In this document: positions 17,902 through 28,437 of the stretch, piece after piece
How the letters are laid out: each line of letters begins with the position of its first letter
Position numbering within the stretch: the first letter of the stretch is position 1
Position numbers and translations under genes: made by a program
Assembly (NCBI GenBank): GCA_027459465.1
Contig: DAIDIH010000198.1
Location: forward strand, 1 to 32,601
Source: Bryobacterales bacterium
GTDB lineage: Bacteria > Acidobacteriota > Terriglobia > Bryobacterales > Bryobacteraceae
Direction of reading: 5' to 3'
Length of the DNA stretch: 32,601 nucleotides
Notes under the pieces: model-generated
What the model was told of the DNA's origin: nothing
Databases searched by the model: none
The model's input: only the letters and a program-made list of their open reading frames with translations

Positions 17902-20489
17902 CGGGAAACCAGATCCGCCAGCAGTTTCTTGACTTTTTCGAGGCGCGCGGGCATCGCGTGGTGCGCAGTTCGTCGCTGGTGCCTGCCAACGACCCGACGC
18001 TGCTATTTGCCAACGCCGGGATGAACCAGTTCAAGGACGTGTTCACAGGCGTGGAGCAGCGGGCGTATTCGCGCGCGGCGAGCAGCCAGAAATGTGTGCG
18101 GGCGGGCGGCAAGCACAACGACCTCGACAATGTGGGGTACACGCGGCGGCATCACACGTTTTTCGAGATGCTGGGGAATTTTTCGTTTGGGGACTATTTC
18201 AAGGCCGAGGCGATTGCGTTTGCCTGGGAACTGATTACGCGGGACTGGGCGCTCGAGAAGGACAAGCTGTACGTGACGGTGTTCCGCGAGGACGATGAGG
18301 CGGCGCGGTTGTGGACGGAAGTGGCGGGTGTGCCGGCGAGCCGGATCTTCCGGATGGACGAGAAAGACAACTTCTGGCAGATGGGCGAGACGGGGCCGTG
18401 CGGGCCGTGTTCGGAGATTCACTACGACCTGGGTCCGGAGGCGGCGGAGCCGGGGCGGGAGCATGAAGAATTTCCCGAGGACGGCGGCGGGCGGTTCATG
18501 GAGATCTGGAACCTGGTGTTCATGCAGTTTGAACGCTCGGCGGATGGGGCGATGACGCCGCTGCCGCGGCCGTCGATCGATACGGGGATGGGGCTGGAGC
18601 GCGTTGCGAGCGTGCTGCAGGGGAAGACTTCGAACTACGAGTGCGACCTGCTGAGCCCGATTGTGGATCTGGCGGGGAGGCTGTTCGGGCCGGCGGCGCC
18701 GGTGGCGGCGTTGCGGATCAATGCGGACCATGCGCGTGCGGCGGCGTTTCTGGTTCATGATGGCGTGCTGCCGTCGAATGAAGGGCGCGGGTATGTGCTG
18801 CGGAAGATCATACGGCGCGCGCTGCGGCATGGGCGGCTGGCCGGGCGGACGGCGCCGTATCTGGCCGAGTTGACCGCGTTTGTGGCGCGGTTGATGGAGC
18901 CGGGGTATCCAGAGATGATCGAGAGCATTCCCCGCGTGAGCCGGGTGGTGACCGAAGAAGAACATCGGTATGCGTCGACGTTTCAGGTGGCCGAGAGGGT
19001 GTTCTTCGATGAGGCGCGGTCGGCGGAAGGCGGGCTGCTGCCGGGTGCGGCTTCGTTCAAGCTGTATGACACGTACGGCCTGGCGCTCGATGAGCAGCGG
19101 GACCTGGCGCGGGAGCATGGGCTGACGATTGACGAAGCCGGCTTCGAGGCCGAGATGGAGAAGCAGCGCACGCGGGCGCGGGCTTCGTGGAAAGGGGCGG
19201 CGAAGGCGGCGATTCCGGAGGTGTACCGGACGCTGCCAACGACCGAGTTCATCGGGCGGGAGACGTTGGAAGCGCCGGTGCGGCTGGAGCGGGTGATCGA
19301 GCGGGATGGGCGCGTGGAGCTACTGCTGGATGTGACGCCGTTTTACGCCGAAGCGGGCGGGCAGGTGGGCGACCGCGGGGTGCTGGTTTTTGCGTCGACG
19401 GGCGAGCCGGCGGCTGAGGTGGAAGATACGTACAAGCCGGCGCCGGGCGCAATTCTGCACAAGGCGCGGCTGCTAGCGCCGCTGAAGGGCGGGGAAAAGT
19501 TGATTGCGCGCGTGGATGGGCCGCGGCGCGAGGCGATCATGCGGAACCACACGGCGACGCATCTGCTTCATGCCGCGCTGCGGCGGGTGCTGGGCGGCCA
19601 CGTGAAGCAGGCGGGCAGCGTGGTGGATCCGAACCGGCTACGGTTTGATTTTACGCATTACGCTCCGGTGCACGCGGATGAGTTGGCGCAGATTGAGCTG
19701 CTGGCGAACCGGGAGATTTTAGAAAACATCGCGGTGCGGACCGATGTGATGGAACTCGATGACGCGCTGAAGACCGGGGCGATGGCGCTTTTCGGGGAGA
19801 AGTACGGCGAGAAGGTGCGTGTGGTGACGATCGAGGATTTCAGCCGCGAGCTTTGCGGCGGGACGCATGTCGATCAGACGGGGGACATCGGGGTTTGCAA
19901 GATCGTCAGTGAGGGCGGGATTTCGGCGGGCGTGCGGCGGATTGAGGCGATCACGGGCGGCGTGGCGCTGGAACGGTTCCAGGAAGCGCTGCAGTCGCTG
20001 GGGAGGGTTTCGTCGCTGGTGGGTTCGAGCGGGCATGCGGATCCGACGCCGCAGATTGAGAAATTGCTCGAGGAGAATAAGGCGCTGGAGAAGCAGCTTG
20101 AGCAGTTGAAGGCTCGGCTGGCGCAGGCGCGGGCGGGGCAACTGGAGCAGTCGGCGAGGACGTTGAAGGGAGTGAAGGTGCTGGCGGCGGAAGCTCCGGG
20201 GATGGACCGGGCGCAGTTGCGGGCGTTGGCGGATTCGCTGCGGGCGAAGTGGAAGACGGCGGTGGTGGTGCTGGCTTCGACGGAGGATGCGAGCGTGTCG
20301 ATTGTGACGGCGGTGACCAAGGATCTGACCGGGCGCGTGCATGCGGGGAAACTGGCCGGGGTGCTGGCGCAGGCAGTGGGCGGCAAGGGCGGTGGGCGGC
20401 CGGACATGGCGGAGGCGGGCGGGAAGGATCCGGCGGCGCTGGCGGGGGCGCTGGATCAGATTTACTCGTCGATTGAGGCGCAGCTTTAA
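17898..20489 (+). CDS. alaS: Alanine-tRNA ligase
   Basis: AlaRS charges tRNA-Ala and edits mischarged Ser and Gly. The 863-residue product is complete. The class II catalytic core is at the N-terminus (IRQQFLDFFEARGHRVVRSSSLVP, FANAGMNQFKDVFTG, the HHTFFEMLGNFSFGDYFK motif, and GCPC-like GPCGPCSEIHYDLG). The editing domain has its zinc ligands in HTATHLLH (His551, His555) and CGGTH (Cys653, His657). A coiled linker follows near 715-750 and then the C-Ala domain with a glycine-rich GGKGGGRPDMAEAGG. It lies between the HAD gene and ypdA with single-codon overlaps on both sides. Confidence 0.97.
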   Translation: MTGNQIRQQFLDFFEARGHRVVRSSSLVPANDPTLLFANAGMNQFKDVFTGVEQRAYSRAASSQKCVRAGGKHNDLDNVGYTRRHHTFFEMLGNFSFGDYFKAEAIAFAWELITRDWALEKDKLYVTVFREDDEAARLWTEVAGVPASRIFRMDEKDNFWQMGETGPCGPCSEIHYDLGPEAAEPGREHEEFPEDGGGRFMEIWNLVFMQFERSADGAMTPLPRPSIDTGMGLERVASVLQGKTSNYECDLLSPIVDLAGRLFGPAAPVAALRINADHARAAAFLVHDGVLPSNEGRGYVLRKIIRRALRHGRLAGRTAPYLAELTAFVARLMEPGYPEMIESIPRVSRVVTEEEHRYASTFQVAERVFFDEARSAEGGLLPGAASFKLYDTYGLALDEQRDLAREHGLTIDEAGFEAEMEKQRTRARASWKGAAKAAIPEVYRTLPTTEFIGRETLEAPVRLERVIERDGRVELLLDVTPFYAEAGGQVGDRGVLVFASTGEPAAEVEDTYKPAPGAILHKARLLAPLKGGEKLIARVDGPRREAIMRNHTATHLLHAALRRVLGGHVKQAGSVVDPNRLRFDFTHYAPVHADELAQIELLANREILENIAVRTDVMELDDALKTGAMALFGEKYGEKVRVVTIEDFSRELCGGTHVDQTGDIGVCKIVSEGGISAGVRRIEAITGGVALERFQEALQSLGRVSSLVGSSGHADPTPQIEKLLEENKALEKQLEQLKARLAQARAGQLEQSARTLKGVKVLAAEAPGMDRAQLRALADSLRAKWKTAVVVLASTEDASVSIVTAVTKDLTGRVHAGKLAGVLAQAVGGKGGGRPDMAEAGGKDPAALAGALDQIYSSIEAQL

Positions 20490-21484
20490 TGGCGGCCAGT
20501 TACGACGTTGTGATCATTGGCGCGGGGCCGACGGGGCTTGCGTGCGGGATTGAGATCGGGCGGGTGGGGTTGAAGGCGCTGATTCTCGACAAGGGTTGCG
20601 TGGTCAATTCTCTGTACAACTATCCGACGAACATGGTGTTTTTCACCACACCGGAGTTGCTGGAGATTGGCGGGCTGCCGATGACGTCGCTGAACGAGAA
20701 GCCGGGGCGGACGGAGGCTCTGAAATACTATCGGCGGGTGGCCGACCACTATAAGCTGAATGTTCGCCAGTACGAACTGGTGCTCGCGATTGAGGGTTCG
20801 GACGATAACTTCACGGTGGTGACGGATAAGGGGCGGTATGGGTGCCGGAAGGTGATTCTGGCGACCGGCTATTACGATGTTCCGAATCTGCTGAACGTGC
20901 CGGGCGAGGACCTGAGCAAGGTCATTCATTATTACAAGGAAGCGCATCCGTATTACAACCACGATGTGCTTGTGGTTGGGGCGAAGAATTCGGCGGCGAT
21001 CGCGGCGCTGGAACTGCACTGGACGGGGGCGCGGGTGACGCTGGTGCATCGCGGTGCGCGGCTATCGGAGAAGATCAAGTACTGGATCAAGCCGAATATC
21101 GAGAACCGGATCAAGAACGGCGAGATCCGGGCGTATTTCAACACGACGGTGCGGGAAATTCTGCCGAAGGAAGTGGTGCTTTCGACGCCGGAGGGGGAAG
21201 TGTGGCTCAAAAACGATTTTGTGTTTGCGATGACGGGCTACCGGCCGGACCTGGAGTTTCTTTCGGAGAACGGGATTGTGCTGGATGCGAAGACGCAGCG
21301 GCCCCGGACGAATCCGGAGACGTTGGAGAGCGACCGGCCGGGGGTGTATCTGGCGGGAGTGATTGTAGCGGGGATGCACACGAACGAGATTTTTATCGAG
21401 AACGGGCGATTCCACGGGGCGGCGATCGCCAAAGCGATCGCCGCCCGGGTTTCCCCTGCACCCTGCCCCTCAGCCCAACGCTGA
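20489..21484 (+). CDS. ypdA: YpdA-family FAD/NAD(P)-dependent reductase, putative bacillithiol disulfide reductase
   Basis: The 331-residue flavoprotein has an N-terminal FAD loop (VVIIGAGPTGLACG) and a central NAD(P) loop (VLVVGAKNSAAIAALEL), then the C-terminal FAD-binding GVYLAGV. It lacks the CxxC of thioredoxin reductases, as YpdA proteins do, and has the YpdA-like SLYNYPTNMVFFTTPELLEIGG, MTGYRPD and MHTNEIFIENGR stretches. YpdA reduces oxidised bacillithiol. Its presence implies bacillithiol or a related thiol in this organism; no bsh genes are in the window. The ATG shares a base with the alaS stop (TAATG), so it belongs to the HAD-alaS-ypdA unit. Confidence 0.88.
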   Translation: MAASYDVVIIGAGPTGLACGIEIGRVGLKALILDKGCVVNSLYNYPTNMVFFTTPELLEIGGLPMTSLNEKPGRTEALKYYRRVADHYKLNVRQYELVLAIEGSDDNFTVVTDKGRYGCRKVILATGYYDVPNLLNVPGEDLSKVIHYYKEAHPYYNHDVLVVGAKNSAAIAALELHWTGARVTLVHRGARLSEKIKYWIKPNIENRIKNGEIRAYFNTTVREILPKEVVLSTPEGEVWLKNDFVFAMTGYRPDLEFLSENGIVLDAKTQRPRTNPETLESDRPGVYLAGVIVAGMHTNEIFIENGRFHGAAIAKAIAARVSPAPCPSAQR

Positions 21485-21524: not shown

Positions 21525-22583
21525 TCACACGCTGACCACGGGGCAATGGGACTGCCGGATCAGCGAATAGGAGTTGGTCAACAGCGCCCCGAAGGAGGAA
21601 CTGTCGACACTCCGCCCGATGACGAGCAAGTCTGCGTCCACGTTTTCCGCCGTCGAGGCGACGACGGCCGGCACCTCGCCGGTTTCCACGTGAACGTCCG
21701 CCCGCAAACCTAATTCGCTTACTCGCCTTTGCACCGCCTCTTGCGCTTCGCGCCGTAATTCGGCGGCCCAGCGCGCACCGGCGGCGAGGCGCTCACCCGG
21801 AGGAATGGCGTGGACTACCGTGACGGAGGCGCGAATTTTCCAAGTCAGCCGGCGGACCCAGCCGAGGACTTGCCGCGCCCGCGCATCGCGGTCCACGGCG
21901 CAAACGATACGGCGCAGGTTCATTCGCACGTGTCCGACACGCTGCTCGAGGTGGGCGCAGGTCCAGACTGGACAGGGCGCCGTTTGCAGAACACGTTCGG
22001 CGACTGCGCCGAGAATCAGCTTCCGGAAGGGGCTGGTTCCGCACGTCGGCATCAGAATCAGGTCCGAGTGCTCCCGCACGGCGCATTCGGCGATGGCGGC
22101 AGCGGGGTCCGTTCCGTACCGCACGACAGGCCGCACCTTCAAGCCATCCAACAGCGCGGGCCAGTTTCGATCGAGCCACTCGCGCTGAGTTGGCCGGCAT
22201 GCGGTTGACTTCACCATAACGCTGCGTTCGCCAGCGTGCGATGGCGCGGGGGAGAGCTTGCGTCCTTCCATTACGTGAAGCACGGTTATGGTGGAACCGA
22301 AATGCCGCGCCAAATCGGCAGCCTGGTGTGCCGCCTGCGAGGAACGCGACGAAAAGTCTATCGGCAGGAGAATTCTGGCGATGGCGTGAGAGGACTCGAT
22401 CCGGGCCGGCGCCTCGCACGCCGGCGCGTGGCTCGGCCCGGCTTCAGCCGGAGTTCTTTTGGCCGAAGTCCGGTCGATCCCGAATTGTGTGTGCGCTGCA
22501 ACCGAATGCAGCGCTCCGATGACCTGCCTGGATTCCGGGGAACGGATCACTACGGGGCTGCTGATAGGTTCTCTGACGGTCAC
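21525..22583 (-). CDS. Tandem universal stress protein (two UspA domains)
   Basis: Two UspA-type domains are fused. The first begins at about residue 68 of the 352-residue form (ARILLPIDFSSRSSQAA) and ends with TCGTSPFRKLILGAVAERVLQTAPCPV, close to the ATP-binding G-x-x-G-x9-G-S/T pattern. The second starts at LRRIVCAVDRDARARQV and ends with LLVIGRSVDSSSFGALLTNSYSLIRQSHCPVV. The frame is open to a GTG at 22808, and ATGs exist at 22649 and 22640. I chose the GTG at 22583 (GGA five bases upstream) because a sigma-54-type promoter sits at 22639-22624 and the residues before it resemble no domain. Cytoplasmic; nucleotide-binding stress adaptor. It converges on ypdA. Confidence 0.85.
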   Translation of the reverse strand: MTVREPISSPVVIRSPESRQVIGALHSVAAHTQFGIDRTSAKRTPAEAGPSHAPACEAPARIESSHAIARILLPIDFSSRSSQAAHQAADLARHFGSTITVLHVMEGRKLSPAPSHAGERSVMVKSTACRPTQREWLDRNWPALLDGLKVRPVVRYGTDPAAAIAECAVREHSDLILMPTCGTSPFRKLILGAVAERVLQTAPCPVWTCAHLEQRVGHVRMNLRRIVCAVDRDARARQVLGWVRRLTWKIRASVTVVHAIPPGERLAAGARWAAELRREAQEAVQRRVSELGLRADVHVETGEVPAVVASTAENVDADLLVIGRSVDSSSFGALLTNSYSLIRQSHCPVVSV

Positions 22584-22623: not shown

Positions 22624-22639
22624 GGCAACCAGGTTGCCA
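22624..22639 (-). promoter_or_regulatory. Sigma-54-type -24/-12 promoter for the universal stress protein
   Basis: On the minus strand TGGCAACCTGGTTGCC places GG and GC exactly ten bases apart, as in TGGCACGNNNNTTGC. The start would be near 22613, about 30 bases before the GTG at 22583. The site is also a perfect odd palindrome (GGCAACC, one base, GGTTGCC), so it could be an operator or fire both ways. Confidence 0.55.
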
Positions 22640-22924: not shown

Positions 22925-22940
22925 TGGCAGGAAGATTGCG
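22925..22940 (+). promoter_or_regulatory. Sigma-54-type -24/-12 promoter for the exported protein and two-component system
   Basis: TGGCAGGAAGATTGCG has GG and GC ten bases apart and TTGC at -12, close to TGGCACGNNNNTTGC. The predicted start, near 22951, leaves a leader of about 47 bases with a good AGGAAGAGAGGA ribosome-binding site before ATG 22998. Confidence 0.65.
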
Positions 22941-22997: not shown

Positions 22998-23546
22998 ATG
23001 AGACCACTTCGCTCACTCACCAGTGGGCTAAATCTGGCGCTCCTGGCAACGGGCTGCCTTTTGGCGCCCGCCGCGATGCGGGCACAGCAGGCCGATGGGG
23101 AGCGGGTATTGAAGCTGCTCTCCGATGCGAAGGCAGAGGCTGTGCAGCTCAGAAATGACTCCGACGAGCTGTCGGCGATTACGCGTTCGTCGAAGGCGTG
23201 GCAGACCTATGGCGAGAAGATCGGGATGATCAAGGAGCACGTGAACGCGACGGGGAAACTGTTGACCGATATGCGGGAAGCGGAGGCGGTAGCCGATCCG
23301 TGGCAGAAGGCCGCGATGAACCAGATTGAGCCGCTGCTGCAGGAACTGGCGGCAAATACGGAGCGTACGATCAAGCACCTGAACGAGAATCAGAACCGGG
23401 TCCACATGCCGGAGATGAAGGATCTCGCGAAGGCGAATCTGGCTCTGGCACGCGATCTTGAGACGCTGATCCGGGACTACGTCGACTATGGCAACGCGAA
23501 GCAGACGTACGAACGGTTGGCGGGAAAGCTGAAGGTTGTTGACTGA
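22998..23546 (+). CDS. Exported helical protein of unknown function, first gene of the two-component operon
   Basis: I do not recognise a family. The 182-residue product has a signal peptide (RPLRSLTSG, then LNLALLATGCLLAPAAMRAQ); a cysteine at position 20 makes a lipoprotein conceivable but the lipobox is poor. The rest is charged, glutamate- and lysine-rich and almost wholly predicted helix, with heptad-like stretches (LLQELAANTERTIKHLNENQNRV), and has no cysteine. It lies 64 bases before the sensor kinase and after a sigma-54-like promoter. By position it resembles ZraP, a periplasmic helical protein made with the sigma-54 ZraSR system; this is an analogy of layout, not sequence similarity. 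Confidence 0.75.
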   Translation: MRPLRSLTSGLNLALLATGCLLAPAAMRAQQADGERVLKLLSDAKAEAVQLRNDSDELSAITRSSKAWQTYGEKIGMIKEHVNATGKLLTDMREAEAVADPWQKAAMNQIEPLLQELAANTERTIKHLNENQNRVHMPEMKDLAKANLALARDLETLIRDYVDYGNAKQTYERLAGKLKVVD

Positions 23547-23610: not shown

Positions 23611-24957
23611 TTGGCCGTAGCCGAGCCTGCTATGCTGATGGCGGACGTGTTTCGGCGGCTAGTTCGGGAATCGTCGCTGCTGGCGCCGGATGTTTGCTCC
23701 TTCCGGCGCCAAGAGACGGGGTTCCTGATCGTCAATTTGTTTGTCCTCGCTGCGCTGCTGCTGAGTCATGCCCTTTTCCCCTCTTATTTGGGCGTCCCTC
23801 CCGCGAGCCTCGTGGCTGTTCTGACGGCGGGCTTCCTGGCGAATGTGGTCGAACTTATCTGGATTCAGGGCGCCGAGACGCTTTCGGCCGGCGGTATGGT
23901 GGTGCTCACATGGATGTCGATCGGATTGAGCATGACGCTGGCTTTCGCGTTGGCGACGCTTTCCTACCGGCAAGATATACAGTACTTCGCGCTACTTGCC
24001 GTTCCGATCGTCCAGAGCGCATTCCGGTTTTCTCTCCGTGCGGCAGTCTTTGTTGTTCTCTTGAGCGACTTACTGCTTCTTTTCTGGGTGTGGAATTACT
24101 TCCGCCTGCATCCTCCAGCCGACGCGGTCGAGTACATCGAGGCGGTGACGATCGCGGCGATTTACTCGATGATTGGGATCCTGGTATGGATTCTGGTGAA
24201 CCATCTGAGGGACAGGCACAGCGAACTGCAAGCGAGCCTGGTGGCGCTCGACCAAGCCAAGGAGAAGCTGCTGGAGGAGGAGAAACTGGCCGCGATGGGC
24301 CGGTTGTCGAGCGCGATCGCGCATGAGATCCGCAACCCGGTGGCGATGGTGTCCTGCGCGTTGGCCACGGCCATGCGGGAAGGGCTGACCGAGCCCGAGC
24401 GCCGGGAGATGTTCGATATTGCGGCGCGGGAGGCTTCGCGGTTGGAGAAACTCACGACCGACTTTCTCCGGTACGCGCGGCCGAAACCTCCGGCCAAAGA
24501 GCCGGCCGATCTGGCGGATTCGATCGCCTATGTGGCGGACATCTGCCGGCCCCGGGCGGCGTGCCGTTCCGTGGAGATTCGACTGGAGCCTTGCGGACGG
24601 CTGCCGGCGGAGATGGACAGCGGGCAGATACACCAGGCGTTGCTGAACCTGGTGATGAATGCGATTGACGGGTCGCGCGAGGGCGACACGGTGACGCTGC
24701 GCGGGACCGCGCAGAACGGCGAGGTGAGGGTGGAAATCGAGAACACGAACGGACCGATTCCGGAAAACGCCGTGCAGCAGATTTTCGAACCTTTTTTTAC
24801 GACGAAGCCTTCCGGCACCGGGCTTGGTCTGGCCATTGCGCGCAGTATCGCGAGGAGTCATGGCGGGGACGTGGTGCTGGCCCGGAATGAACCGGAAGTG
24901 GTAGCGTTCCGCGCGACATTTCCCGCAGCCGCGGAGGCGAAGGAGAACCGTGGGTAG
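23611..24957 (+). CDS. Membrane-bound sensor histidine kinase (NtrB/ZraS-like)
   Basis: The 448-residue product has about six membrane helices in residues 35-198 with short loops and no large periplasmic domain, then a short coiled region (residues 201-225), a HisKA domain with the phospho-accepting His238 in SSAIAHEIRNPV, and a HATPase_c domain with the N box (NLVMNAIDGS, Asn350), FEPFFTTKPSGTGLGLAIA (G boxes, 392-410). The HEIRNP H box and membrane input module suggest the signal is sensed in or near the membrane. The start is a TTG at 23611 with GGGGAG eight bases upstream; ATGs at 23632 and 23638 lack such a site. Its stop overlaps the regulator gene by eight bases, so it is clearly its partner. 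Confidence 0.9.
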   Translation: MAVAEPAMLMADVFRRLVRESSLLAPDVCSFRRQETGFLIVNLFVLAALLLSHALFPSYLGVPPASLVAVLTAGFLANVVELIWIQGAETLSAGGMVVLTWMSIGLSMTLAFALATLSYRQDIQYFALLAVPIVQSAFRFSLRAAVFVVLLSDLLLLFWVWNYFRLHPPADAVEYIEAVTIAAIYSMIGILVWILVNHLRDRHSELQASLVALDQAKEKLLEEEKLAAMGRLSSAIAHEIRNPVAMVSCALATAMREGLTEPERREMFDIAAREASRLEKLTTDFLRYARPKPPAKEPADLADSIAYVADICRPRAACRSVEIRLEPCGRLPAEMDSGQIHQALLNLVMNAIDGSREGDTVTLRGTAQNGEVRVEIENTNGPIPENAVQQIFEPFFTTKPSGTGLGLAIARSIARSHGGDVVLARNEPEVVAFRATFPAAAEAKENRG

Positions 24958-26338
24958 AATTCTGATTGTCGACGACGAGCGCAATCTGCGCCGCATTCTT
25001 GCGGCGAACCTGCTGCAGGAGCACCACATCGTATCGGAGGCGGGCGGCGTGACAGAGGCGAAAGCCGCGCTGGCGGCGACGCAGTTCGACGCGGTGATTA
25101 CGGACCAGAAGATGCCGGACGGCGAGGGGCTGGAAGTGCTTGCGTTCGCGCACGAATCGGATCCGGCGCTTTCGGTGGTGGTGTTGACCGCGTTTGCGAC
25201 GGTGCAGCTTGCGGTGGAGAGCATGCGGCGGGGCGCGTTCGATTTTATCGTCAAGCCGTTCGAGCCGGAGACGGTGCGGGCGGCGATGCGGCGCGCGTGC
25301 GAGCACACGAACCTGCTGAGAGAAAACGGTCTGCTGAAGCTCACGGTAGACCGGCTGGAAGGGTCCTCGGAGATTTACGGAGAGAGTCCGGCGATCCTTG
25401 CGCTGCGGGAGATGATCAGCCGGGTGGCCCCGACGAACGCGACGGTGCTGATCAGCGGGGAAACGGGGACGGGGAAGGAACTGGTTGCGCGCGCGATTCA
25501 CAAGAGCAGTCCGCGGGCGCAGAAGCCGTTTTTGGCGATCAACTGCGCGGCGTTTACGGAGACGCTTCTGGAGAGCGAGTTGTTTGGCCACGAAAAGGGC
25601 GCGTTTACGGGCGCCGATCGGGTGCGGCCGGGCCTGTTCGAAGCGGCGCACGAGGGCACGCTCTTTCTGGATGAAGCGGGCGAGATGTCACCGGCCGCGC
25701 AGGCCAAGTTGCTGCGGGTTCTGGCGGAGGGGAAGGTACTGCGATTGGGTTCGACCAAGCCGCGGGATGTCGATACGCGGGTGCTGGTGGCGACGCACCG
25801 GGACCTGGCCGACGATATGCGGCGCGGCACGTTCCGCCAGGATTTGTACTACCGGCTTGCGGTGGTGCCGATCACGCTACCTCCGCTTCGTGCGCGGCGG
25901 GAGGATCTGCCTGGTCTGTGCGCTCTGTTCTGCCGGCAGGTGGCGCAGGAGCTGAAAGTGCCTCAGCGCGGAATAAGCGCGAAAGCGATCGAGAAGTTGC
26001 GGCGGTACGATTTTCCGGGCAATATTCGGGAACTGCGCAATCTCATCGAGCGGGCGTTAATTCTGTCGACGGCGAAGGAGCTTGGGCCGGAGGATTTTCC
26101 GCTGGCTCCGGCGCAACCCGTGGCTCCGGGCGTCAACAATTCGTACTCCTGGATCGATGGGATGCCGGAGTCGCTTGCTCTGCGCGAGTTTCTGGACGAC
26201 GTCGAGAAGCGTTTGATTCAGAGAGCGCTGCGATCGAGCGATGGCGTGCAGGCCGAAGCGGCGCGCCGGCTACAATTGTCGCGAAGCGACCTTTCGTACA
26301 AGCTCAGCAAGTTTGAGATTCGGGCGAGCAAGGACTGA
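24950..26338 (+). CDS. NtrC-family sigma-54-dependent response regulator
   Basis: The 462-residue protein has three domains. The receiver (1-120) has the acidic pair DD (8-9), phospho-acceptor Asp52, Thr80 or nearby and Lys102. The AAA+ domain (about 140-370) has Walker A GETGTGKE (170-177), the GAFTGA loop (217-222) that contacts sigma-54, Walker B LFLDEAGEM and the R-finger region. The Fis-type helix-turn-helix is at the end (VQAEAARRLQLSRSDLSYKL). All residues for sigma-54 activation are intact. It starts at a GTG with a strong AGGAG, overlapping the kinase. It probably binds the TTTGAAC elements found nearby. It converges on the DUF2231-like gene eight bases away. Confidence 0.95.
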   Translation: MGRILIVDDERNLRRILAANLLQEHHIVSEAGGVTEAKAALAATQFDAVITDQKMPDGEGLEVLAFAHESDPALSVVVLTAFATVQLAVESMRRGAFDFIVKPFEPETVRAAMRRACEHTNLLRENGLLKLTVDRLEGSSEIYGESPAILALREMISRVAPTNATVLISGETGTGKELVARAIHKSSPRAQKPFLAINCAAFTETLLESELFGHEKGAFTGADRVRPGLFEAAHEGTLFLDEAGEMSPAAQAKLLRVLAEGKVLRLGSTKPRDVDTRVLVATHRDLADDMRRGTFRQDLYYRLAVVPITLPPLRARREDLPGLCALFCRQVAQELKVPQRGISAKAIEKLRRYDFPGNIRELRNLIERALILSTAKELGPEDFPLAPAQPVAPGVNNSYSWIDGMPESLALREFLDDVEKRLIQRALRSSDGVQAEAARRLQLSRSDLSYKLSKFEIRASKD

Positions 26339-26346
26339 ACGGCGGC

Positions 26347-26886
26347 TCAGTCGCCGTTGGTGGAGGCGCGCACCTGGACGACATGCGGCGAGGCGGGCCC
26401 GGAGGCCGCCGCTTCGACTTCGCGAGATAGGTGGGCGCCTTGACGGGCCGTGTGAGCGAGAATCACGATGCCGGCCGCGTAGAGCAACAGGTAGACAACG
26501 GGCAGTGCCGCCGGAGCGGGCCGTGCCGCGCCGTTGTTGAGCCGCCGCGGGGCGAATACAATCGCGGCGAGGATCACGGTGAGCCCCGTGAAGGTGGTTC
26601 GCGTTAGCTCGGCCAGTTTGACATGTTCGTGCAGGACCGCGCGGAGACGGAAAGAGGCATCACCGAAATGTTCGAGAGCCGATGCGTTGCCGCCGGCCAG
26701 GTACAAAAGGATCGTGCCGGCGGCCACCAGCGCCAGCGCCGTCCGCAAGAATGGGAGGCTCGGCGCCTTGCGCCAGACAACCGCCCGCACGATGAACAGC
26801 GGCGCCAGCCCGAGCACCGGAATCGCGACATGCATCGCGATGGGGTGCAAGGCCTGCCAACCCGGGAGTGAAGGCAACGCCGCCAC
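26347..26886 (-). CDS. DUF2231-like integral membrane protein
   Basis: The 179-residue product has four hydrophobic helices: PIAMHVAIPVLGLAPLFIV, LALVAAGTILLYLAGG, TFTGLTVILAAIVFA and LPVVYLLLYAAGIVILAH. The LHPIAMHVAIPVL start near residue 13 is the histidine-containing entry motif of DUF2231 membrane proteins, which often accompany redox proteins; conserved histidines (His14, His19, and others in HEHVKL) could bind heme, but this is not shown. It begins 11 bases after the rubrerythrin stop, on the same strand, so it should share the rubrerythrin transcript. Confidence 0.7.
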   Translation of the reverse strand: MAALPSLPGWQALHPIAMHVAIPVLGLAPLFIVRAVVWRKAPSLPFLRTALALVAAGTILLYLAGGNASALEHFGDASFRLRAVLHEHVKLAELTRTTFTGLTVILAAIVFAPRRLNNGAARPAPAALPVVYLLLYAAGIVILAHTARQGAHLSREVEAAASGPASPHVVQVRASTNGD

Positions 26887-26897
26887 AGGAATCGCTC

Positions 26898-27506
26898 CTA
26901 TTTCACCTGCTCGAACTGCTCTTTGGGGGTGGCGCAGCTAGGACAGGAATCAAAGTTCAGCTCGCTGGCCGTGAATCCGCAGACCGGGCAGACGTAGAAC
27001 ACTTTGGCTTCCCTGAAGTTCTCGAGATTGTCGAGCGCGTTCTGGAAGAGTTTGGCGTGCTCGGTTTCGGCGGCCAAGGCGAGGGTGAAGGTCCGTTCGG
27101 CCTCCGCGTTGCCGTCGCTGCCGGCCTGGCGGAGGAAATCGGGATACATCTGGTCGCGCTCGTAGGTTTCGCCTTTGATGGCGACTTCGATGTTCTCGCG
27201 CGTCGATCTTACGACGGGTTCTTCCAATTGCACATCGGGCACGCCGCCGAACTTACGGATGACGGCGGCATGATTGGCCGCATGAATCTGTTCGGCGCGC
27301 GCTGCCGCGCGGAAAAGGCTGGCTACGCCGGAGTATTCTTCTTCGTCTGCCTTTTGGGCGAAGGCGAGGTAGCGCTGGTGCGCGTTGCTTTCGCCGCGGA
27401 AGGCCGCCTGGAGATTTTTCATGGTAGCCGCGGTGTTCCCGTTGTCCTGAGCCAGGCCAACGAGCGGAGCCGCCGCTATGGCAAGTAATACATGTGTCGT
27501 TCTCAT
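26898..27506 (-). CDS. Exported rubrerythrin
   Basis: A two-domain rubrerythrin of 202 residues. The ferritin-like domain has the diiron ligands expected of the family: Glu39, Glu72 and His75 (ExxH), Glu113 and Glu116, then Glu147 and His150 (ExxH). The C-terminal rubredoxin domain has CPVC (173-176) and CPSC (188-191) for one iron. Rubrerythrins reduce peroxide with electrons passed by the rubredoxin part. Unlike most, this one starts with a signal peptide (RTTHVLLAIAAAPLVGLA), so it should act in the periplasm. The ATG at 27506 has GAGGGA about nine bases upstream; the frame is open to 27581, which would overlap the sigma-54-like promoter. The DUF2231-like gene follows. Confidence 0.88.
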   Translation of the reverse strand: MRTTHVLLAIAAAPLVGLAQDNGNTAATMKNLQAAFRGESNAHQRYLAFAQKADEEEYSGVASLFRAAARAEQIHAANHAAVIRKFGGVPDVQLEEPVVRSTRENIEVAIKGETYERDQMYPDFLRQAGSDGNAEAERTFTLALAAETEHAKLFQNALDNLENFREAKVFYVCPVCGFTASELNFDSCPSCATPKEQFEQVK

Positions 27507-27564: not shown

Positions 27565-27580
27565 CGCAAGTGGAGCGCCA
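27565..27580 (-). promoter_or_regulatory. Sigma-54-type -24/-12 promoter for rubrerythrin
   Basis: On the minus strand TGGCGCTCCACTTGCG keeps TGGC and TTGC with GG and GC ten bases apart. The predicted start, near 27554, gives a leader of about 48 bases. Together with the activating element at 27644-27670 it mirrors the stress-protein promoter. Confidence 0.6.
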
Positions 27581-27690: not shown

Positions 27691-28437
27691 CTAGAGGGGG
27701 GCTTCGGCGGCGCCGAGGACTTTGCCCTCCTCGCCCTGCGACTCGAAGGCGATGACGCGGAGACCGGCCTTGCCGGCGCCGGGCGGCACAGCGAACCGGA
27801 CGGTCTGCCGGTATTCGCCGTCCTTGCCGATCCGGCCCGCCTCGCGGAGTTCCCGCACGACGGCGACATGGCTGAGAGTTCTGCCAGCGTTCTCGCCGCG
27901 GCGCACCTGGGTCGCGGCGCGCGCATCGGCGAGGGCCACCATCACGCGCGTTCCTTTCTTTCCGCGGGCTGTCACAAGGAAGCTTACGCTGCCGTCAGCG
28001 CCGCGGGCCGCGCCGGCGATCTGGACATCGGGTGTGGCCCCAGCGATCGCCTTCATGATCTCCTGCTCCGCCTTCCGGCCGTCACTGCCCACGAAGGCGG
28101 ACTCGCCGTTGACGATCATCTCCGGCGTGAAGACGCCAAGATCGGAAAAACGCTGCGCGTAGCGTTGCTGCCGCTTGCTGAATTCGGCCGAGGAGTAGGG
28201 GTCGGTCCACCCATCGCTGTTCCAGTAATCGACGTGCTCGCTTAATACGATCAGGGCCGTGCCGTTCTGCTGGCCGATTTTGTCGATCCTTGCGAGGAGG
28301 TCGTCGGCCGGCGGACAGCTTGAACAACCTTCGCTGGTGAACAACTCGATCAAGACGCCGGGCCGCGCGGGCGGATCGGCGGCTTGGAGGAGGCAGGCAG
28401 GCGCCAGAGCCAGGGCCATCATCCATCGCAATGTCAT
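27691..28437 (-). CDS. DUF1223 exported thioredoxin-fold protein
   Basis: The 248-residue product has a signal peptide (TLRWMMALALAPACLLQAA) and the DUF1223 hallmark ELFTSEGCSSCPPADDLL with the redox pair Cys38 and Cys41, then LSEHVDYWNSDGWTDPYSS and TPEMIVNGESAFVGS, which are characteristic of the family. DUF1223 has a thioredoxin-like fold; its natural partner is not known to me. It should act in the periplasm. The start ATG at 28437 has GGAAGG at about six bases. It lies just upstream of the rubrerythrin promoter on the same strand, another redox-type exported protein in this neighbourhood. Confidence 0.9.
   Translation of the reverse strand: MTLRWMMALALAPACLLQAADPPARPGVLIELFTSEGCSSCPPADDLLARIDKIGQQNGTALIVLSEHVDYWNSDGWTDPYSSAEFSKRQQRYAQRFSDLGVFTPEMIVNGESAFVGSDGRKAEQEIMKAIAGATPDVQIAGAARGADGSVSFLVTARGKKGTRVMVALADARAATQVRRGENAGRTLSHVAVVRELREAGRIGKDGEYRQTVRFAVPPGAGKAGLRVIAFESQGEEGKVLGAAEAPL

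What the first reader, a model, noticed from the sequence alone, without database searches (positions are those of the whole stretch)
26347..27506. Rubrerythrin with a signal peptide, paired with a DUF2231 membrane protein
Rubrerythrins are normally cytoplasmic. This one has complete diiron and rubredoxin ligands but starts with a clear signal peptide, and the next gene, 11 bases on, is a four-helix histidine-containing membrane protein. A periplasmic peroxide-reducing system fed with electrons through the membrane partner is conceivable. Iron-sulfur-free rubredoxin sites can be loaded outside the cytoplasm, or export could be by Tat after folding, but no twin-arginine is seen.
Basis: partly seen in the sequence, partly recalled or inferred. 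Interest (0 to 1): 0.55.

Follow-up and report, generated by a model that had tools for sequence, protein, structure and literature searches.

The report
Exported rubrerythrin with membrane redox partner
A peroxide-destroying iron enzyme normally found inside bacteria is here apparently sent outside the inner membrane, beside a conserved membrane protein that may feed it electrons, and the pair seems to be switched on by its own two-component sensor system.

Summary
In detail: a 202-aa rubrerythrin (26898-27506, -) with diiron and four rubredoxin ligands, a Sec-type signal peptide, and a DUF2231-related four-helix gene 11 bases downstream.

In its clade (90 nonredundant loci, several phyla) 83 carry a signal peptide or lipobox, against 1 of 35 ordinary rubrerythrins. 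Of 79 exported members with room downstream, 60 have DUF2231 next; 0 of 7 unexported clade members and 0 of 35 ordinary ones do. Where it is missing, a ferric-reductase-type flavocytochrome (9 loci) or a Rieske protein (6) follows in 15 of 22 named cases. This swap is the best evidence for electron feeding.

A membrane histidine kinase with a sigma-54 regulator accompanies the pair (kinase in 38 of 51 named loci, 0 of 26 others). Sigma-54-type sites precede 40 of 61 paired and 4 of 64 unpaired rubrerythrin genes. The window's three best such sites precede Rbr, a small exported protein and a universal stress protein.

Location, activity and electron transfer are inferred. Heme in this window's partner is doubtful: two of five family histidines are arginines.

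The parts
26898..27506 (-). Exported rubrerythrin, 202 aa: signal peptide (about residues 1-19), diiron four-helix domain, C-terminal rubredoxin domain
   Evidence: Pfam PF02915 92 bits; diiron ligands invariant in 21 aligned sequences; AlphaFold model pLDDT 92.5, best PDB match nigerythrin 1yux, rmsd 1.5 over 175 columns; signal peptide conserved in kind across the clade
27450..27506 (-). Signal peptide region (MRTTHVLLAIAAAPLVGLA), predicted by eye and by an own simple scorer
   Evidence: no twin-arginine motif
26347..26886 (-). DUF2231-related four-helix membrane protein, 179 aa, GTG start, 11 bases after the rubrerythrin stop
   Evidence: Same-strand downstream gene in 60 of 79 exported members with room; Pfam DUF2231 in 22 of 24 aligned family members, not in the window copy itself; model of the L021 relative with four helices, pLDDT 84; charge pattern puts both ends outside
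27566..27580 (-). Sigma-54 type -24/-12 element TGGCGCTCCACTTGC, 59 bases before the rubrerythrin ATG
   Evidence: Only match of TGGCNCN5TTGC in the window, though 24 of 100 shuffles have one too; comparable sites in 40 of 61 DUF2231-paired and 4 of 64 other nonredundant loci
24950..26338 (+). Response regulator with sigma-54 activator and Fis-type DNA-binding domains (NtrC type)
   Evidence: Pfam Response_reg, Sigma54_activat, HTH_8; such a regulator beside the pair in at least three gene orders
23611..24957 (+). Sensor histidine kinase with a hydrophobic, multi-helix N-terminus (by eye)
   Evidence: Pfam HisKA and HATPase_c; homologue of its N-terminal 222 residues in 40 of 80 named loci, 38 of 51 nonredundant DUF2231 loci and 0 of 26 others
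22998..23546 (+). Small protein of unknown family, 182 aa, with an apparent signal peptide; likely same regulon
   Evidence: No Pfam match; homologue in 19 of 80 named loci; sigma-54-type site ahead in 10 of 18 nonredundant copies, against 3 of 40 kinases and 3 of 37 regulators
22925..22939 (+). Sigma-54 type element TGGCAGGAAGATTGC, 58 bases before the small exported protein
21525..22583 (-). Tandem universal stress protein, possibly same regulon
   Evidence: Pfam Usp, two stretches; GTG start at 22583 chosen by comparison with the L069 copy, inferred
22625..22639 (-). Sigma-54 type element TGGCAACCTGGTTGC, 41 bases before the chosen start of the universal stress protein
   Evidence: One of the three best sites in the window; same position in the window, L068 and L069

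Best explanation
The locus encodes an extracytoplasmic peroxide reductase module. A nigerythrin-like rubrerythrin is exported by Sec and works in the periplasm, or tethered to the membrane as a lipoprotein in some relatives. Its diiron centre reduces H2O2 (possibly O2) to water, and its rubredoxin domain takes the electrons. The DUF2231 membrane protein, whose conserved histidines lie on the periplasmic side, passes those electrons from the membrane, most likely from quinol. In other lineages the same job is done by an NAD(P)H-driven ferric-reductase-type flavocytochrome, or in cyanobacteria by an exported Rieske protein. A membrane histidine kinase and its NtrC-type regulator switch the operon on through a sigma-54 promoter, together with a small exported protein and, in this genus, a universal stress protein, probably when oxygen or respiration falls. 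Shown by computation: gene family, signal-peptide-like N-termini, conserved pairing, partner exchange, kinase and regulator neighbours, promoter-like elements. Inferred: location in the cell, peroxidase activity, electron transfer by DUF2231, promoter use, the signal sensed.
For: Branch between the clade and six ordinary rubrerythrins supported at SH-aLRT 99 (quick tree). Signal peptide or lipobox in 83 of 90 nonredundant members, 1 of 35 others. DUF2231 next door in 60 of 79 exported members with room, 0 of 7 without a signal peptide, 0 of 35 ordinary ones. Among 77 nonredundant named loci: exported+DUF2231 51, exported+flavocytochrome 9, exported+Rieske 6, exported+none seen 7 (3 of them cut by a contig end), not exported+none 4. 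Flavocytochrome domains (Ferric_reduct, FAD_binding_8, NAD_binding_1) confirmed by Pfam on one example and Rieske PF00355 on two. Kinase homologue in 38 of 51 DUF2231 loci, 0 of 26 others, in at least three gene orders. Sigma-54-type sites 40 of 61 against 4 of 64; rpoN present in the genome. Charge pattern over 61 partners: K+R mean 2.18 and 3.10 in the short loops 1-2 and 3-4 (D+E 0.18 and 0.64), 0.00 in the N-terminus; outer loop and tail K+R 2.05 and 1.80 but D+E 5.62 and 4.61. Genus comparisons (six pairs of four sequences): Rbr dN/dS 0.11-0.28, partner 0.26-0.57.
Against: No biochemical evidence. The DUF2231 model is a generic four-helix bundle without a diagnostic fold match, and no cofactor site could be tested. 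In the window's genus two of the five family histidines are lost. In exported lineages the fourth rubredoxin ligand can be Ser or Asp (7 and 5 of 61 paired members), and four cyanobacterial members have a degenerate site, so the rubredoxin route cannot be identical everywhere. Four exported members with sequence downstream show no redox neighbour (L133, L136, L142, L146). The test that signal peptide and partner go together on the tree has no power (1-3 independent pairs). The signal-peptide codons themselves evolve faster in the genus (dN/dS 0.13-0.78), as signal peptides often do. The number of strong sigma-54-type sites in the window is no more than in shuffles.
Confidence: 0.5

Rival explanations
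1. The exported rubrerythrin is a periplasmic peroxidase, but DUF2231 only anchors or stabilises it, or delivers metal; electrons come from a soluble carrier.
For: DUF2231 shows no diagnostic redox fold; the window genus lost two histidines yet keeps the gene with dN/dS 0.26-0.57; histidines and acidic residues on the outer side could bind metal.
Against: Where DUF2231 is absent the neighbour is a redox protein in 15 of 22 exported named loci, of two different kinds, which suggests an electron-supply role.
Confidence: 0.2
2. The module handles iron: an exported ferroxidase-like diiron protein with a membrane reductase, serving iron oxidation, storage or reduction rather than peroxide removal.
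For: Ferritin-like fold (PF00210 also matches, 35.4 bits against 24.5); a ferric-reductase-type neighbour in 9 loci.
Against: The rubrerythrin ligand set including E113xxE116 is invariant in 21 sequences, and a rubredoxin-like domain is matched in 18 of 21 members, with altered ligands in some; the closest solved relative is nigerythrin, for which a paper title seen in a reference list reports peroxidase activity.
Confidence: 0.13
3. Rubrerythrin and DUF2231 form a periplasmic redox sensor that signals to the adjoining histidine kinase.
For: Close linkage to a kinase and regulator in at least three gene orders, 38 of 51 loci.
Against: The sigma-54-type site lies in front of the rubrerythrin gene, which makes it look like an output; the flavocytochrome and Rieske loci lack this kinase (none of the 26 loci without DUF2231 has it).
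Confidence: 0.08
4. An ordinary cytoplasmic rubrerythrin with a misplaced start; the signal peptide is an artefact.
For: An in-frame ATG exists just before the conserved core, also in L021 and L044.
Against: Signal peptides or lipoboxes of differing sequence recur in 83 of 90 clade members; the internal Met is Leu or Val in 22 of 28 aligned sequences.
Confidence: 0.03

Closest known systems
Nigerythrin of Desulfovibrio vulgaris (1yux)
   Same: Best solved relative by profile (E 3.6e-47) and by structure (rmsd 1.5 over 175 columns, 36% identity); same domain order and a similarly long loop before the third core helix
   Different: 132 bits against a cut-off of 340 for the nigerythrin equivalog; no signal peptide or membrane partner for nigerythrin was seen in what I looked at (listing of 13 papers; passages), which is little
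Classical rubrerythrin
   Same: Diiron and rubredoxin domains, complete ligands in the window
   Different: A passage on delta-proteobacteria places the Sor/rubrerythrin system in the cytoplasm on the basis of signal peptides (PMC545781, passages); members of this clade look exported and, in many, sigma-54 controlled
DUF2231 (PF09990)
   Same: 22 of 24 aligned partners match
   Different: The window's own copy falls below the model; one paper in the library names DUF2231 and none names it with rubrerythrin
MsrPQ (periplasmic MsrP fed by the membrane heme protein MsrQ); recalled, no call
   Same: Works-like comparison: exported oxidoreductase with a membrane electron feeder of ferric-reductase type, as in the flavocytochrome lineages
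   Different: Different enzyme, substrate and partner family
Anabaena RbrA with FNR (PMC6616624, passages)
   Same: Rubrerythrin peroxidase needing a dedicated reductase
   Different: No signal peptide is mentioned for it in the passages shown (12 of 22 places), and its donor is NADPH through FNR

Membership tests
Rubrerythrin superfamily (PF02915) | Curated Pfam score | tested here: met
   92 bits against 22.8; 21 of 21 aligned members match at E<=0.01
Rubrerythrin superfamily (PF02915) | Diiron ligands E, ExxH, ExxE, ExxH | tested here: met
   Invariant in 21 sequences
Rubrerythrin superfamily (PF02915) | Rubredoxin domain with four Cys | tested here: inconclusive
   Four Cys present in the window but RUBY_RBDX 26.2 against a cut-off of 26.5; ligand replaced in some relatives
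Rubrerythrin equivalog NF045767 | NCBIfam cut-off | tested here: not met
   106 bits against 200
Nigerythrin equivalog NF045783 | NCBIfam cut-off | tested here: not met
   132.4 bits against 340
DUF2231 (PF09990) | Curated Pfam score, window protein itself | tested here: not met
   No hit at E<=0.1; near copy on C306 16 bits against 26.4
DUF2231 (PF09990) | Homology to members that match the model | tested here: met
   Full-length alignment, 34% identity to L021; 22 of 24 rows match PF09990 at E<=0.01
Sec-exported protein | n- and h-region and cleavage site; no twin arginine | tested here: met
   Own scorer: 83 of 90 clade members against 1 of 35 controls; cleavage site by eye; no trained predictor available
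Sigma-54 dependent operon | GG-N10-GC element, NtrC-type activator, rpoN | tested here: met
   (consensus recalled); transcription itself not testable
Rubrerythrin peroxidase | H2O2 reduction with rubredoxin-domain electron supply | not testable with these tools
   Needs biochemistry

The most novel reading that the evidence does not exclude
DUF2231 is a new family of small transmembrane electron feeders (quinol to periplasmic rubredoxin domain), making this a quinol-driven extracytoplasmic peroxide or oxygen reductase under sigma-54 control; flavocytochrome and Rieske partners are replacements in other phyla.
Probability: 0.3. Interest if true: 0.78.

Novelty: new variant of a known kind. Interest (0 to 1): 0.62.

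Why it matters
Rubrerythrins are generally treated as cytoplasmic enzymes. A whole exported clade across several phyla, with interchangeable redox partners and, in Acidobacteriota, its own sigma-54 two-component control, would add an extracytoplasmic peroxide-reducing system, offer a first testable function for DUF2231, and give these bacteria a defined stress response that may be linked to low oxygen.

Tried and rejected
Internal start: rejected; Met in 6 of 28 aligned sequences only. Tat export of the rubrerythrin: no RR-x-hydrophobic-hydrophobic motif in 83 N-termini. Fold search with the DUF2231 model: only generic four-helix bundles; no Foldseek match at E<=0.001; cytochrome b561 4o6y (Z 10.6) and the hemerythrin-like DcrH domain (Z 11.2) lie among unrelated rows, so no cofactor can be read from it. 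Sequence search of solved structures with the DUF2231 alignment: one match, E 0.068, to an antiporter subunit, not meaningful. Enhancer motif for the regulator: the dyad TGTC-N10-GACA occurs in 9 of 54 upstream regions of DUF2231 loci and 0 of 61 other regions; the commonest dyad in five shuffles of the 54 averaged 3.8; GTCA-N8-TGAC, nested in it, 8 of 54 and 0 of 61. The window itself has instead a GAAC-N14-GTTC dyad shared with L068 and L069 (N15 in L110). A promising lead, not pursued. Joint loss of signal peptide and partner on the tree: no power. Sigma-54-type sites ahead of the universal stress protein outside this genus: not clear. A first count used unreliable starts (3 of 15); a second filter kept one gene; in the third, 16 nonredundant cluster members were taken, 5 dropped for lack of the motif used, and 4 of 11 scored at least 9, three of them the window, L068 and L069, against 0 of 11 inside-gene controls. 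Whether Acidobacterium capsulatum carries this clade could not be resolved.

Full report
OBSERVATION. The rubrerythrin matches PF02915 at 92 bits. Its diiron residues are invariant in 21 aligned sequences, and the model (pLDDT 92.5) matches nigerythrin best (rmsd 1.5 over 175 columns). The N-terminus MRTTHVLLAIAAAPLVGLA-QD is a Sec-type signal peptide by inspection and by my own simple scorer; no trained predictor was available.

IS THE SIGNAL PEPTIDE REAL? Searches of 396 phylum genomes and 200 family genomes gave two groups: close relatives, most with an N-terminal extension, and ordinary rubrerythrins that start at the core. A scan of genome contigs with patterns taken from the mature core, so not selecting for signal peptides, gave 80 named loci, the best of 232 confirmed relatives. 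After merging copies at 96% identity, 145 loci became 125. Of these, 90 belong to the clade (own profile score at least 230; the profile was built on A1, whose rows all have the N-terminal extension) and 35 do not. 83 of 90 carry a signal peptide, of which 15 show a lipobox by a loose pattern that may include a few false ones. Among the 35 others one does (L045). The seven clade members without are L025, L036, L037, L091, L093, L113 and L123. L025, L091 and L113 have a hydrophobic N-terminus that my scorer rejects for lack of positive charge, so they are ambiguous. Where the window has the internal Met, 28 aligned sequences (near copies included) have Met in 6, Leu in 20 and Val in 2.

IS THE PAIRING REAL? 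Of 86 clade members with more than 300 bases downstream, 60 have a signal peptide and a same-strand DUF2231 gene within 1 kb, 19 have a signal peptide without DUF2231, 7 have neither, and none has DUF2231 without a signal peptide; 0 of 35 others have DUF2231. In one counted case (L090) only an N-terminal fragment of 22 bits remains. Pfam finds DUF2231 at E<=0.01 in 22 of 24 aligned partners, though the window's own protein is too diverged to be recognised.

WHAT REPLACES IT. In nine loci of Lentisphaerota, Hydrogenedentota, Auribacter and one unnamed bacterium the next gene encodes a 445-484 aa protein; the one example tested has ferric-reductase membrane, FAD-binding and NAD-binding domains. 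In six cyanobacterial loci a Rieske protein follows (two tested); its N-terminus (RRTFLAW... in L128) looks like a Tat signal by eye. Of the 22 exported named loci without DUF2231, 9 have the flavocytochrome, 6 the Rieske protein, 3 are cut by a contig end and 4 show no redox neighbour. Both DUF2231 (L102) and the flavocytochrome (L117) occur in loci titled Hydrogenedentota. On the quick tree the flavocytochrome group is one branch (support 94), the Rieske rows need three changes, and the window's five-row DUF2231 group sits beside three Rieske rows (support 83). That different membrane or exported proteins take the same place, two of them redox proteins, is the main argument that DUF2231 supplies electrons. 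It remains an inference.

PARTNER ANATOMY. The model of the L021 partner has four helices (pLDDT 84). Over 61 partners, the short loops 1-2 and 3-4 carry K+R 2.18 and 3.10 with D+E 0.18 and 0.64; the N-terminus carries no K or R; the 2-3 region and tail carry K+R 2.05 and 1.80 but D+E 5.62 and 4.61. By the positive-inside rule both ends face out. Family histidines H14 and H19 (61 of 61), H88 (59 of 61), and the positions of window residues 148 (His in 51 of 61) and 155 (His in 55 of 61) then lie on the outer side (one search prints numbers two lower because its rows start at residue 3; depth inferred from helix positions). In the window and its genus residues 148 and 155 are arginine, or at 155 glutamine in one copy. 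Fold searches were not diagnostic. In the genus the partner's dN/dS is 0.26-0.57 (six pairs of four sequences), so it is not simply decaying.

REGULATION. The kinase and NtrC-type regulator next to the pair in the window recur in at least three gene orders (the call's clustering is loose and includes some other two-component genes). The stricter test uses the kinase's own N-terminal 222 residues: homologues in 40 of 80 named loci, in 38 of 51 nonredundant DUF2231 loci and in 0 of 26 others. Some loci without it have short contigs. With a recalled consensus, sigma-54-type elements scoring at least 9 lie within 250 bases of the start in 32 of 40 DUF2231 loci with the kinase, 8 of 21 without it seen (nine of these 21 had only about 1.5 kb of flank), 2 of 23 exported without DUF2231 (one of them, L079, is cut by its contig end) and 2 of 41 not exported; 38 of the 40 sites in the first two groups begin 50-90 bases before the start. 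The Fisher value (1e-12) overstates certainty because rows are related. Before merging copies, 48 of 81 paired loci reached a shuffle p of 0.01 or less, against 0 of 23 and 0 of 41. The small exported protein shows such a site in 10 of 18 copies, against 3 of 40 kinases and 3 of 37 regulators. In the window the three best sites on either strand precede the stress protein, the small protein and Rbr, although the number of strong sites is no more than in shuffles (5 against 3-5) and the exact pattern at Rbr occurs in 24 of 100 shuffles. The genome has rpoN.

PHYSIOLOGY. In Acidobacterium capsulatum, on a shift from 10 to 0.1 umol O2 per litre, rbr was among genes rising up to 13-fold, one uspA rose 56-fold and a sensor kinase 84-fold (PMC11636273, section 13 read). 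Whether those genes belong to this clade is not known. The composition of the cluster (kinase, stress protein, Rbr) makes low oxygen a sensible first hypothesis for the signal.

RUBREDOXIN SITE. The fourth ligand is Cys in 49, Ser in 7 and Asp in 5 of 61 exported paired members. In 22 exported unpaired ones it is Cys in 17, Ser in 1 and not found by the motif in 4, all cyanobacterial. All 7 clade members without a signal peptide have Cys, as do all 28 ordinary rubrerythrins with the motif (7 lack it). In this set, site changes are confined to exported members.

LITERATURE. All ten paper searches: rubrerythrin with signal peptide and periplasmic, DUF2231, rubrerythrin with DUF2231, with lipoprotein and Rieske, 'periplasmic rubrerythrin', with ferric reductase and periplasm, with Acidobacteri, oxidative stress and operon, with rpoN, nigerythrin and COG4244. 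No description of such a module was seen in the listings or in the passages read of six papers; most listed papers were not opened, and the library holds open-licence papers only. One paper places the Sor/rubrerythrin system of its organisms in the cytoplasm (PMC545781, passage).

VERDICT. It is a new variant of a known kind; its chemistry and electron path are open and testable.

Noticed in passing
G000 contig C306 (L003, L013): A second copy of the locus, rubrerythrin 96% identical with the same neighbours; with 7.27% contamination reported for the assembly it is probably a related strain mixed into it rather than a duplication.
   Followed up: partly
L019, L024, L027, L029-L034, L106, L112, L120, L125-L127, L130, L131, L137: Fourth rubredoxin ligand replaced by Ser or Asp in exported rubrerythrins; four cyanobacterial members (L135, L139, L144, L145) have a degenerate site. 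Natural variants of an iron site that may work outside the cytoplasm.
   Followed up: partly
L045; probably also G548 C347: A different, diverged rubrerythrin-like lipoprotein (lipobox, rubredoxin motif not found, no DUF2231 in the 1.5 kb beside it) in the same family of bacteria: possibly a second exported rubrerythrin type. The G548 copy is inferred from its similar match and was not read.
   Followed up: no
window 20489-21484 (+): Pyr_redox_3 flavoprotein (pyridine nucleotide-disulphide oxidoreductase) next to the universal stress protein; may or may not belong to the cluster.
   Followed up: no
window 27691-28437 (-): DUF1223 protein with an apparent signal peptide (by eye) directly upstream of the rubrerythrin promoter, same strand.
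   Followed up: no
L001 979-1935 (-), G000 C279: Rubrerythrin-like domain joined to a multi-helix membrane part, resembling the erythrin-VIT iron transporters (recalled name, no family scan run beyond PF02915).
   Followed up: no
L077, L079, L087, L088, L089, L103, L122: A P-type metal ATPase-like gene lies within 7 kb of the module in seven named loci (family recognised by eye).
   Followed up: no
upstream of Rbr in DUF2231 loci (54 regions): Dyad TGTC-N10-GACA in 9 of 54 upstream regions and 0 of 61 others, a candidate binding site for the NtrC-type regulator; no TGTC is visible by eye in the 330 bases before the window's own gene.
   Followed up: partly
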